Positions 13,852 to 55,613 of a stretch of 64,000 nt of DNA are shown here, piece after piece (positions within the stretch are counted from its first letter, which is position 1; each line of letters starts with the position of its first letter). This stretch comes from Scylla paramamosain (taxonomy: Eukaryota > Arthropoda > Malacostraca > Decapoda > Portunidae). The position numbers and the translations under genes were made by a program. The stretch covers positions 9,134,104 through 9,198,103 of the forward strand of contig NC_087190.1 of the NCBI RefSeq assembly GCF_035594125.1, given 5' to 3'. Below the pieces are notes generated by a model. It did no database searches and was not told where the DNA came from. It saw only the letters and a program-made list of their open reading frames with translations.

Positions 13852-14469
13852 TACTGATTCTGGGCCCAGACGATTACTGTTACGCTGTAATAAAGTATAC
13901 TTCTTCCCCAGACCATGTCATTCCTGTGGGGAGGGAGGGGCAGGGCCTGTCTTTTGGAAAATTGAATATATTGCACAGCAGAGGGAAATAATATTCTATG
14001 GATGTGGTTGGATTTTTGTCTTGTTGTTTGTCAGGGCGGTAGTCCATAGAATAATATAATCCTTATATGTGTTAGTCGCTCGTCGTAGCTGTGCCTCCTA
14101 GAACGATTCTTTCCTAGCTGTTAAGGTGACTTTACAGTTGTGGTGCTCCCTTGCCTGTAGGAAGTGAAACAGGCTGACGACCTCAGTTGTGTAATTCACC
14201 ACAGGAGGCCAGAAGAACCTGTGGAGGTGAATGTGAGCTGCGCACTGCTCTGCGTAGGAGGCAGGGTAGGAAGGTTGACCCTGGTAGTGGCAGCCGAGAA
14301 AAGGAGCGGAACTTGGAGTTATGACCGTTTGTTCAAAGGGTGCAAAAGACCAGAAGGACCTTGTAATCCATAACTGGGCCCTGCACTAAGTTATGTATGT
14401 GGTAACTTAGGGAGGTACACCAAGATAAAGGCTACCATGAGAGGAGGAGGGGAATTTGTGGTCATAACA
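13852..14469 (+). mobile_element. Gypsy LTR, copy A (5' LTR)
   Basis: About 618 bp that aligns along its length with 18974-19611. Both begin ATTCTGGG(C/T)CCAGACGATTAC, share AAATAATATTCTATGGATG and GTAGCTGTGCCTCCTA, and end at GTGGT(C/T)(A/G)TAACA. A TATA-like AATATATT (13965-13972) precedes a stem-loop at 13992-14053. The following 14470-15500 holds a gag gene, so this is the 5' LTR of a Gypsy-type element. Confidence 0.75.
13992..14053 (+). promoter_or_regulatory. LTR stem-loop, copy A
   Basis: Arms TATTCTATGGA (13992-14002) and TCCATAGAATA (14043-14053), loop of 40 nt. It starts about 27 bp after the TATA-like box, so it should lie at the 5' end of the LTR transcript. Confidence 0.7.
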
Positions 14470-15074
14470 GAAATTTGTGACCTCGCCGGGATTGCTGGAA
14501 GCTTCCTAGCTACGTGGGGGAAACGATTGCTTGTTATTCGTTTCATTGTTCTTTATGTGCCAGCATTCAGCTTACGCCATGGAGGGAAAGGCTGGTAGCA
14601 TGAGTGGCTCGCGGCCCGCGCCTCCTGTCTCTGACTGAAGTGGCAGTGTAGATTTGACCCAGTTTGGTGTCAGGACACCAAGGAAGGGAGTGCCCAAGGA
14701 AGGACGTGTTAGCGCTGCCCAGTGATGATGGATTTTCCCTGACAGAAGGCATGTCAGAGGAAATGAGATTTAAACTAGAGATGAAGAGAATGAAGTTGGA
14801 GAAGGCTAGAGAACTAAGAGATTAGAGGCTGAGAAGTAGAGAGAATTGAAAAAGGTTGAACTGGAAGCTGAGGAGAGGAGATTTAAGGCTGAAGAAACTA
14901 GGGAAGCCAGAAGGCTTGAGGCCGAGGGGGAAGCCAAGAGGCATCAGGCCGAGAGGGAGTAGGAAATGAGATTGCTTGGGGCGGAGAAGGAGGCAAAGAT
15001 GTATGAGAGGGAAGAGGCTGAGAAGAATATAATATTTGAGTTGGAGAAAACACAAATAGAGGTTAATTCACCTT

Positions 15075-15500
15075 ATGGGTTGCAGAGGAGTGAAGGAGGA
15101 TATGAAGGAAAGACAAATGGTGAGAAGTTTAAAGTTAATACCTGAGTTTGATGAAAAGAAAGTGACGAAATGGTTTCAGAGGTTTGACCTGAAGGCCTCA
15201 GAATTTGATTGGCCTCACGAGAGATGGGTTGTCCTTGTTGCTAAAATGTTGAATGGCAAGGCTCTTGAGGTTTATGATAAAATGTCAGTGAAAGATCTGG
15301 TGGATAACGAAGAGTTCAAGGCTGACATCCTGAGAGCCTACGAGCTACGGCCCGAGGCATATAGGCTACAGTTTCTCGGAGGGAAGAAAAGGCCCTGTGA
15401 CTCCTACCTTCAGTGTATTCTCTACCTGGAGAAGACATTCGAAAAGTGGATTGCTTGGGAGCAGGCCAATTCCTACCGTGACTTAGAGGCAGTTTGTTAA
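15075..15500 (+). pseudogene. Gypsy gag with SCAN-like domain
   Basis: 141 residues ending at TAA 15498-15500. Key blocks are LKLIPEFDEKKVTKWFQRFD, FDWPHERWVVLVAKMLNGKA, then ADILRAYELRPEAYRLQF and CDSYLQCILYLEKTFEKW. This is the SCAN-like capsid domain seen in gag proteins of Gypsy elements with this layout in animals, where it assembles the particle. The true N-terminus is upstream: 14755-15060 reads as a coiled coil with many EAE/EKE repeats but has several stops. No intact zinc knuckle is seen downstream. Confidence 0.8.
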
Positions 15501-16503
15501 TGTGGCCGAGAAAGAGTTAGTACCGCTGCTCCAGGAGAAAAAATTTTGAAAGAGGCAGCCACGTGAACAGACCATCACGTGTTGTCACATCGGCCTGTGC
15601 CACGTTGGATCGGTGGTACATCTGGCGGAGCCGGTAAAAATTTGTCTGGAGATGTGGCAGGCGCCAATTTGTCTGGAAGCCCACGTTATAGTAGTGGCTG
15701 CAGTAATTAGTCTGGGCGAGTAATCCCTGTTGCAAATAAGTCTCCACCCATCCCATAACGAAAACAGACTGGGAACATGCAATACAGCACTCCCAGGTAT
15801 AGCACGTAGCCTGTGTGGCATTTTAAACTTAATGCCCCAAGTTAGTTACAGCCATGGTTTCCAAGAACCCCAGAAGCCAGTGGCTTTAACTGAAATACAC
15901 GACCGAGGTCTTGAGAGTGAAGAGTTCGGTCCGTGTTTGGTTTTGAGGGTATAAAGGCGGGCAGTACTTCCCCCTCATCTGTTGATACCTCTTCATCCTT
16001 CGTGAGGCCTAGTTTGGACTAATGCTGTGGTATTTATGTAAGGGCACTGTTGAAATTGCTGAGATTGAGTACCCTGTTGCAGTATTGTATTGAAATTGCT
16101 GGGACTCCGTTGTATACATATTAGGGGTCACTGCTGAGGGCAGGAAGACTCCTGACTCTGCTCGGGAGGTGGGAGTTTCCTACCTTGCGGAGTGTGACGG
16201 AGGCGGGGAGCAAGCTGCTCCCTTGCTAGGACCAGACACGGTGGGTATTTACTCACATCGTGAGCCGCCCCTGTTGGCAGCTACTACTACAGTGTACCCG
16301 AGGAGGGTTCTGTTTCTCAAGGACGTGTTGCCCCACTGCTTGCCAAGGCAGGAGTGGATGGCGAGGGTTGGGCAGTGTTGGTAGGTAATAATACTATTTA
16401 CACTAATTTTAATAGCCGGCAGAGAGAGGATCACGGAGGTTTGATGCTTCATTTTGTTGTGCCATCTGCAGTTAAGAAAGCAAATAGTATGTAGCGGCCT
16501 CTG

Positions 16504-16725
16504 ATGTTAGGCCGGTTTGGAGTCGGATTGATTCAGGAGCTGTTGAGGCGGTTTTGGTGGTCGAATGTGGCCACGTGTGTTAGGTGTAACCACATTAGTC
16601 AGGTTGGTAAGCCTGATTACCTCTCTTCTGGAGGCCTTCTTCCCCGTGTTAGGTCAGGTGCTGTTCCCCCTGGTGTGGGGATTATGAGTAATGTTGCCCA
16701 ATTCCTCCTTCCGGGAGAATTATAA
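16504..16725 (+). pseudogene. Gypsy integrase zinc-binding (H2C2-like) fragment
   Basis: Contains LIQELLRRFWWSNVATCVRC followed by HISQVGKPDYLSSGG. RRFWW-NV-C--C-(C)QVGKP is the form of the HHCC domain that starts retroviral-type integrases. A homologous stretch lies on the minus strand at 62330-62130 (VATFVECCLVGQAGKPDYLL). One Cys of the CxxC pair looks displaced by an indel. The catalytic core after it is not recognisable. Confidence 0.6.
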
Positions 16726-16909
16726 TTATGTAGTTGGCGCAAGCGTTAAGGCGCAGCGTCGAAAGGCAGCGCTAAATGAGGGTGCCGGTGATGTGTTGCT
16801 TGCTGGGGCTTTGTTTTGCAGAGTTGTTGTTACTGGTTAGGTTCTGGGCCTGAGCAATGTAGTATGTGATGATGGATGCCGTCCTCTTCGAAGCGACAAG
16901 GTATCGCAT

Positions 16910-54076: not shown

Positions 54077-54317
54077 GATGATTTTAAAATTTTTGGGTGA
54101 AGGGTGTGTGTGTTATTAGGTGCTTATAGTTTTGTGAGGAGGAAGAGAGTTGTCTTTAGAGGGCAGGCTGTGACTGCCCCCTTGTGTTGTGAGACACAAA
54201 GGGAAACGTTCAGTGAGGGCACAGCTGGGTTTAATGATAAGTTCACAGCACCCCCTGAACAGTGCTTTAGACCTCACTGGGAGTAATTATCGTTTCGGCA
54301 GGTGTCTACTGCCTCCT

Positions 54318-54436
54318 ATATATATATATATATATATATATATATATATATATATATATATATATATATATATATATATATATATATATATATATATATA
54401 TATATATATGTTTATTTATTTATTTATTTATTTATT
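54318..54436. repeat. (AT)n plus (TTTA)n at LINE 5' end
   Basis: AT array to about 54408, then TTTA repeat, starting at the 5' end of LINE copy 11. Confidence 0.97.
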
Positions 54437-55100
54437 TACTCATCATTATGTGGGGTGTAATTAGAGAAAAAGGCGATGAAGGAAATAAGGAGGAGAGACA
54501 GAAGAAAGGTTACGTGGAACGAAGATGTACAATGTACGATAACTACCGAGCTGCTCGCTCGAGGAGACTACTGCAAGATTCCCTGCGCACAGTTGCTCTC
54601 CTTCCTTAATTAATTTTCGTTTGATCGTAACTATTTTACAAAGATCCCATTTTGTTTGTCAGTTGAGTGAGTGAAGGGAGACGAGCGGGCAAAGATGGGA
54701 TGGATTCCCCTCTCCCTCCTCCCCCCTCACATGAGTCATAGCTGGGATGAGCCCGGGCTTTGTGTTTCCACGAGTGAGTCACTGCCTTTATATTGCGCGA
54801 GTCAGATGTACATTTGGAGATAGTGTTGTTCTGAAGAAAGTGGGAGCGATACAGCTACCGGGCCAGTTGCTTTAAGGGGTATTTGAGTAATTTACCGCAG
54901 TACGCCCCTGATTATATGTGCAGTGTTTAGATGTCTCCATCAGCCTGGATGTGAGTGCACTTCCTTGCAAGGCACTCGGTGTACATTACTATACATTACG
55001 ACTTGACTCTTACTCTTACATGATACTTGTTGTATCTGTGCGCGTCCGTTAGACTCTCACCTGCTGGTCTGGGCAGCTTAACTTTGTATTTGTGCTGTTA
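54437..55100. other. Unassigned sequence, no gene seen
   Basis: Moderately GC-rich, no ORF with recognisable motifs; may be upstream or internal sequence of LTR F. Confidence 0.4.
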
Positions 55101-55199
55101 AATGTTACTGTTTTACAAGGCTCTTTTAGAGGATCTGGAAGCAAAGAATTATAGGTACGTTGTTGTGTAGTGAAACTTGACTCCCTCCTCAGGCCCTGT

Positions 55200-55613
55200 C
55201 GAGGCCGGCCATACAGGAGGCTATAAACGACACTAATCAGTAGTAGATTATAATACGTTATTGGACAATGGGTTGGTTTTGTTTCTGGGTGCGGTTGTCA
55301 AGTGAGGTATTTTATCTCGACCACTTAAATGTGTGTCCTTTGTTGTAATTGTCCCTCCCTAGAACGTGGCTACCAATTCTTTCCCAACGAGTTGAGAATG
55401 ATTTTCTTGTTGTTATGATATTTCCTTACTTCTAGGTGGGTGAAACAGGACAGCGACCTCATTCGTGTAACCTCGTCTTATAATCATCTGTTTGAAGTGT
55501 GCAAGAGTCAAAACAGGATTTTGTAACCAATATTAAGCCCTGCACCAAGTCATGTGACTTTGAGGAGCTAACCCACTTTAAGACAGCTGGAAGAGGAGCA
55601 TGAATTTATGGTT
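55200..55613 (+). mobile_element. Gypsy LTR, copy F
   Basis: Has the family layout: TATAAA (55222-55227), stem-loop (55252-55311), CCTCCCTAGAACG...ATTCTTTCCCA, GTGAAACAGGACAGCGACCTC (compare GTGAAACAGGCTGACGACCTC of copy A) and AATTTATGGTTGT at its end, followed by (AT)n. The left boundary is uncertain. Confidence 0.65.
55252..55311 (+). promoter_or_regulatory. LTR stem-loop, copy F
   Basis: 17-nt arms AATACGTTATTGGACAA (55252-55268) and TTGTCAAGTGAGGTATT (55295-55311): 13 Watson-Crick pairs plus two G-U in RNA, 26-nt loop. It starts 30 bp after the first base of TATAAA. Confidence 0.55.

What the first reader, a model, noticed from the sequence alone, without database searches (positions are those of the whole stretch)
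13992..55311. Gypsy LTR family with a stem-loop whose stems covary across six copies
Seen directly: LTR copies A (13992-14053), B (19138-19203), C (20006-20051), D (33946-34015), E (35818-35865) and F (55252-55311) each have an inverted repeat at the same place in the LTR. Stems differ: TCTATGGA in A and B, CTGTTGGGC in C, TCTATGAGC in D, TTCTGTGAGT in E, TTGGACAA in F. In A to E each core pairs perfectly with its own partner; F has 13 of 17 pairs plus two G-U. Loops (26-40 nt) look related (GTGGATGG-TTT, then GGG-GGTAG). Paired changes on both arms point to selection for RNA or cruciform structure, not leftover sequence identity. I know of no described equivalent in this element type, but cannot search.
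Basis: partly seen in the sequence, partly recalled or inferred. Interest (0 to 1): 0.86.

Follow-up and report, generated by a model that had tools for sequence, protein, structure and literature searches.

The report
Paired-arm RNA hairpin in crab retroelements
In a genome that is likely a crab's, the end repeats of a likely gypsy-type jumping element carry an inverted repeat whose two arms changed together between subfamilies, so it is predicted to fold as an RNA hairpin in the element's own transcript, where it likely helps the element handle its RNA.

Summary
The six window sites are homologous LTRs, each with an inverted repeat at the same place; A to E have 9 of 9 core pairs. The LTRs differ by 16% (A/B) or 40-57%, yet own-arm pairing is the best of 120 arm swaps, and 0 of 20,000 simulations at the flank rate kept as much pairing.
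Four of six genome queries were answered; 103 short stretches and 20 of 10 kb (8 random) were read. Four stem types (A, E, F, C) pair in 87-89% of cells in register and 29-56% out of register; arms of different types pair worse. Covariation is strong in type A, marginal in E and F, absent in C. G·U exceeds A·C on the sense strand (154:70; slid registers 1855:1470), favouring RNA over cruciform. One copy has a foldback duplication at the site, so template switching probably occurs there.
Best reading: a sense-strand RNA hairpin kept by selection, function unproven, perhaps Gag recognition through G doublets in the loop. U3 or U5 position is unresolved. My searches showed no described equivalent.

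The parts
13988..14057 (+). hairpin A: arms 13988-14003 and 14042-14057, 38-nt loop
19136..19205 (+). hairpin B: 16-position arms 19136-19151 and 19190-19205, 38-nt loop
20006..20051 (-). hairpin C: 9-bp G+C-rich core arms 20043-20051 and 20006-20014, 28-nt loop
33945..34016 (-). hairpin D: 17-bp arms, 38-nt loop
35818..35865 (+). hairpin E: 10-bp core arms 35818-35827 and 35856-35865, 28-nt loop
55249..55314 (+). hairpin F: 20-position stem with mismatches and G-U pairs, 26-nt loop
13808..14531 (+). LTR part A (profile match), followed by a gag remnant
18936..19688 (+). LTR part B (profile match); homology to other copies reaches back to about 18044-18366; the 3' end runs into a (TA)n microsatellite
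19625..20244 (-). LTR part C (profile match); 3' end runs into the same (TA)n as B
33468..34190 (-). LTR part D (profile match)
35679..36344 (+). LTR part E (profile match, runs past the LTR end); 3' end runs into (GA)n
55084..55696 (+). LTR part F (profile match); 3' end runs into (TA)n
15060..15500 (+). gag-like open frame, 146 aa; 21 relatives, two named (Scylla, Portunus), 7 with SCAN (PF02023)

Best explanation
The LTRs of this likely gypsy-type family carry an inverted repeat that keeps its pairing while its stem letters change between subfamilies, so it is predicted to fold as an RNA hairpin on the sense strand of the element's transcript and is likely kept by selection as a cis-acting RNA signal. 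Shown: homology, co-ordinated arm changes between types, and an excess of G-U over A-C pairs on the sense strand. Inferred: that the RNA folds in the cell and that selection rather than mutation keeps the stem. Most likely role (inferred, about 0.3): the stem presents G doublets in its loop to the element's own Gag or nucleocapsid, for genome selection or dimerisation. Other RNA roles are 3'-end formation or export if the hairpin lies in U3, or leader function if it lies in U5.
For: Six window copies: best of 120 arm swaps and 0 of 20,000 simulations at the flank rate. Copies found through flanks that exclude the hairpin: best inverted repeat at the site scores 8 or more in 32 of 37 for the F query (shuffled 17%) and 13 of 20 for the C query (shuffled 11%; one of the 13 is the rearranged L114); for the E query 18 of 20 by the printed scores, without a shuffle control. 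At profile-located copies, most of them fetched by a query that included the hairpin, 40 of 44 against 23% of 171 neighbouring regions. Standard pairs in register against slid by 1-3 columns: A 88.4% vs 29-54% (42 copies), E 88.7% vs 33-56% (21), F 88.0% vs 30-53% (20), C 87.0% vs 33-44% (18). Watson-Crick fraction of the inner 11 pairs: own 0.80 A, 0.73 E, 0.67 F, 0.72 C; across types 0.27 to 0.62, for example A-F 0.27, E-F 0.31, F-A 0.39, A-C 0.41. G-U:A-C 154:70 vs 1855:1470 slid, nominal p 9e-5; pairs with the wobble in at least 15% of copies 15:2 vs 128:89, p 0.019. RNAalifold finds a 16-pair stem unguided in A, B, D and E.
Against: Within-type covariation is marginal in E and F and absent in C. 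RNAalifold on the 42-copy A alignment and the 20-copy F alignment predicts no pairs; it was not run on E or C. Each named structure was taken from one sequence of its alignment (window B, L104, L061, L129), which favours the register over slid ones. Type C has one nearly fixed C-A mismatch (16 of 18). In type A alone G-U is not in clear excess (42:23 with, 30:23 without the innermost pair, p 0.41). Copies are related and window E is counted in two alignments, so nominal p values overstate. F and C arms pair fairly well with each other (0.61 and 0.52), so independent between-type changes are few. The hairpin score takes any inverted repeat and in some copies (L094, L098, L108) picks one that is not the family stem. 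Three divergent LTR copies lack a clear homologous stem. Only 46 of 99 loops keep GG doublets in both halves. No transcript evidence.
Confidence: 0.6

Rival explanations
1. Template switching: during DNA synthesis or reverse transcription one arm is recopied from the other, so the arms stay complementary without selection.
For: Described as able to create and maintain perfect stems (PMC8794818, passages read). L114 carries what reads as a foldback duplication of the 3' arm. Cores of A to E are perfectly Watson-Crick.
Against: Template switching restores Watson-Crick pairs and does not explain G-U pairs held by 15% or more of copies at 15 stem pairs. Stems remain at the same place in four types.
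Confidence: 0.2
2. DNA-level palindrome: a cruciform or a dimeric protein site close to the promoter.
For: A TATAAT string lies at the 3' base of the stem or close by in 28 of 44 copies; the outer five pairs carry the same commonest letters in A, E and F and pair best. By z-score the antisense strand folds as well as the sense strand in A, B, D and E, as expected if pairing is symmetric.
Against: Inner stem letters differ between types, which argues against a fixed protein site; G-U excess is strand-specific; copy F pairs well only on the sense strand.
Confidence: 0.12
3. Chance inverted repeats or leftover identity between LTR copies.
For: E, F and C show little covariation within the type.
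Against: Arm-swap test, simulation, inverted-repeat census and between-type pairing.
Confidence: 0.04

Closest known systems
Retroviral packaging stem-loops with unpaired purines, such as the MMTV purine loop bound by Pr77Gag (PMC8096270, abstract and section list seen)
   Same: Stem that presents unpaired purines in a retroelement RNA.
   Different: There Gag binding was measured; here neither binding nor the place in the transcript is known.
Animal Metaviridae LTR models, including rGmr1 (PMC3601003, passages read)
   Same: LTR 3' end like YNYAACA; the paper links residual conservation of long R regions to stem-loops, which favour conservation of both arms.
   Different: The passages seen report no hairpin of this type; the stem here varies in sequence.
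Ty1 and Ty3 cis-acting RNA (PMC4974528, passages read)
   Same: Functional RNA parts near the ends of LTR-retrotransposon transcripts, including the Ty3 3' UTR.
   Different: Those are tRNA-binding and cyclisation sequences; packaging sequences are said to be not precisely defined.
Quadruplex-forming sequences in plant LTR retrotransposons (PMC3902901, search listing only)
   Same: G-rich motifs in LTRs.
   Different: Here only GG doublets, inside a hairpin loop; quadruplex untested.

Membership tests
Ty3/Gypsy LTR retrotransposon with SCAN-like gag | gag related to SCAN-domain gag | tested here: met
   21 relatives, 7 with PF02023, two with host names, Scylla and Portunus; the fragment itself has no Pfam hit
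Ty3/Gypsy LTR retrotransposon with SCAN-like gag | LTR end signals TG...CA | tested here: inconclusive
   3' ends GTAACA or ATAACA in A, B and E, GTAGCA in C; F ends at GTA before (TA)n and D is unclear; 5' ends not pinned down
Ty3/Gypsy LTR retrotransposon with SCAN-like gag | pol with RT and integrase | tested here: inconclusive
   8 open frames after copy A: no RT or integrase match, two unrelated matches below cut-off
Structural RNA under selection | covariation beyond shuffles | tested here: inconclusive
   A met (0/500); E 36/500, F 59/500, C 423/500; between types strong
Structural RNA under selection | strand-specific wobble pairs | tested here: met
   154:70 vs 1855:1470; nominal p, related copies; type A alone not significant
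Retroviral-type packaging signal | binds own Gag and directs packaging | not testable with these tools
   no assay
Retroviral-type packaging signal | lies in the transcribed leader | tested here: inconclusive
   a CCTCAKT motif 110-149 nt downstream in 16 of 26 copies would put it in U3; A[AG]TAAA 60-260 nt upstream in 23 of 44 would put it in U5; the reading of both motifs is recalled
RNA G-quadruplex | four G runs kept in the loop | tested here: inconclusive
   both loop halves keep GG..GG in 46 of 99 loops, shuffled 12-35%
Known Rfam family | match to a covariance model | tested here: not met
   0 at gathering threshold in the window; 9 weak matches in 18930-20260 do not cover hairpins B and C; the other hairpins were not searched at the lax threshold

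The most novel reading that the evidence does not exclude
A freely rewiring duplex capped by two GGGNGG motifs forms a quadruplex-duplex RNA that the element's Gag reads by shape, so the stem can drift in sequence while the G-rich head and its pairing are held; a packaging mark of this design spread through many hundreds of LTR copies of a crab gypsy family.
Probability: 0.1. Interest if true: 0.68.

Novelty: new member of a known kind. Interest (0 to 1): 0.47.

Why it matters
Cis-acting RNA signals of metazoan gypsy elements are, to my knowledge, little mapped. A family with hundreds of candidate copies and several rewired stem types is a natural mutagenesis set for telling RNA selection from template switching, and gives a defined target for testing Gag-RNA recognition in SCAN-type elements.

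Tried and rejected
Known RNA families: no Rfam match over the hairpins. A structure model trained on A, B, D and E found C only weakly (14.2 bits, E 0.64, below one unrelated hit at 14.9 bits) and did not list F; the sequence-only model listed neither. The first pair count on the 42-copy alignment (39.6% paired) used a structure one column out of register because of an insert column and was redone. Strand bias within type A alone was not significant. RNAalifold on the A and F alignments gave no structure. IMG/VR: gag query no match; a stem-loop pattern gave six contigs that I took for chance matches and neither checked nor used. Eight random 10-kb stretches held no copy. The G-quadruplex reading was kept only as the novel case.
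Full report
What was claimed. Six LTR copies in the window each carry an inverted repeat whose stems differ but pair, read as selection for RNA or cruciform structure.

Check of the observation. The quoted sequences are present. C and D read in minus orientation. A profile from the six LTR parts finds these six in the window; apart from one faint hit (E 3.6) inside D, its weaker hits lie in microsatellite matched by the profile end. 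The flanks align over several hundred bases, with GTAACA-like 3' ends in A, B and E and GTAGCA in C. Outside the hairpin the LTRs differ by 16% (A/B) and 40-57%. A to E have 9 of 9 Watson-Crick core pairs; F has 6, plus 2 G-U and 1 mismatch. Five of the ten perfect 9-bp inverted repeats with loops of 24-44 nt in the masked window are A to E; block shuffles give 3.75 in all. With A and B merged, own-arm pairing is the best of 120 arm swaps (42 against 40 for the next). Neutral simulation on the LTR tree from a perfect root hairpin never reached the observed pairing in 20,000 runs, 5 times at half rate and 78 times at one third.

What the element is. Copy A is followed by a gag-like frame with 21 relatives, two of them with host names, Scylla paramamosain and Portunus trituberculatus; 7 of the 21 carry SCAN, PF02023. 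This points to a SCAN-type gypsy element in a crab; that SCAN gag belongs to the Gmr1-like gypsy group is recalled. No RT or integrase domain was recognised. Homology between copies suggests LTRs of about 1.4-1.6 kb, with the hairpin about 400 nt from the 3' end in copy A.

More copies. The window lies in a 1.21-Gb assembly. The A query, which includes the hairpin, had 40 of 223 candidates scored; two were window copies A and B and the 38 others were fetched. The F, E and C queries exclude the hairpin. F: 40 of 406 scored, 37 of the 39 others fetched. E: 40 of 197 scored, 20 of 39 fetched. C: 41 matches listed, 40 of 842 candidates scored, 20 of the 40 others fetched. The B and D flank queries did not complete. 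At 44 profile-located copies (six of them the window's, most others from the hairpin-including A query) 40 had a hairpin score of 8 or more, against 23% of 171 neighbouring regions. F query: 32 of 37 against 17% of 185 shuffles. C query: 13 of 20 against 11% of 200 shuffles. E query: 18 of 20 by the printed scores, no shuffle control. The score takes the best inverted repeat in the region, which in some copies, such as L094, L098 and L108 or window C, is not the family stem.

Pairing by type. Alignment A4 holds 42 matches, including window A, B, D and E and L043 twice, aligned with a model that knows no structure; L017, close to L016, was left out. 88.4% of cells are standard pairs against 29-54% in slid registers; the covariation score is 0.179 against 0.127 shuffled, 0 of 500. 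E (21 copies): 88.7%, slid 33-56%, covariation 36 of 500. F (20): 88.0%, slid 30-53%, 59 of 500; 18 of the 37 F-query copies were left out, 14 with A-like stems (L065, L068, L071, L077-L082, L084-L086, L088, L091) and L058, L067, L075 and L083 without a clear F stem. C (18): 87.0%, slid 33-44%, 423 of 500; L114, L118 and L131 left out of 20. Each structure was taken from one member of its alignment, which favours it over slid versions. Copies of a young type differ mostly by private decay, so weak within-type covariation is expected under either view and is no evidence for selection. Between types the arms interchange poorly: inner-11 Watson-Crick fraction 0.67-0.80 own, 0.27-0.62 across, the highest for A with E and F with C.

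RNA or DNA. On the sense strand G-U cells outnumber A-C 154 to 70; slid registers of the same alignments give 1855 to 1470. Stem pairs with the wobble in at least 15% of copies number 15 for G-U and 2 for A-C, against 128 and 89 slid. The nominal p values (9e-5 and 0.019) ignore relatedness, and window E is in two alignments. In type A alone there is no clear excess, and type C has one almost fixed C-A. Copy F folds much better on the sense strand, while by z-score A, B, D and E fold at least as well on the antisense strand. Taken together RNA is favoured, not proven.

Mechanism. The most likely reading is a cis-acting RNA hairpin. Loops keep GG..GG in both halves in 46 of 99 cases (shuffled 12-35%), around a pyrimidine-rich middle. 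Unpaired purines on a stem are what Gag reads in MMTV (PMC8096270, abstract); applying that here is analogy. Position in the transcript is open: a CCTCAKT motif, read as an initiator from a recalled arthropod consensus, lies 110-149 nt downstream in 16 of 26 copies, and A[AG]TAAA lies 60-260 nt upstream in 23 of 44.

Main rival. Template switching can make and mend stems (PMC8794818, passages), and copy L114 shows what reads as a foldback duplication at this very site. Wobble pairs held by many copies are not what it predicts, but both processes may act.

Known or new. Six literature searches on the element, its LTR or LTR hairpins, one on microsatellite insertion and one on the rival showed no described equivalent in the rows listed; longer result lists were cut to 6-15 rows, titles and abstract starts were seen, and the library holds open-licence papers only. 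Structural RNA in LTR elements is a known kind; this is a new member.

Noticed in passing
about 19614-19706, 36146-36225, 54319-54409 and 55617-55748: LTR 3' ends of B, C, E and F run straight into (TA)n or (GA)n microsatellites; B and C share one (TA)n tail to tail, and F also has (TA)n on its 5' side. L009 matches (TA)n on its 5' side too. Insertion preference or microsatellite birth at the ends.
   Followed up: partly
L114: What reads as a foldback duplication of the hairpin's 3' arm, a long perfect palindrome: a likely template-switch scar.
   Followed up: partly
10063-12910, 20455-21902, 28102-30980, 45041-47127, 51084-54112, 57391-60661: Several damaged copies of one non-LTR retrotransposon (RVT_1 match for the frame at 10402-11247; repeats).
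   Followed up: no
50607-51116: Ornithine/arginine decarboxylase fragment (PF02784, E 1.6e-13) in a frame that runs into a (TA)n microsatellite.
   Followed up: no
18240-18480: A roughly 120-base direct tandem duplication upstream of LTR part B, probably inside the same LTR.
   Followed up: no
L043:3440-3535, L043:6440-6535, L038:9245-9330: Divergent LTR copies found by the downstream profile without a clear homologous hairpin; L043:3528 has a different possible stem with wobble pairs.
   Followed up: partly
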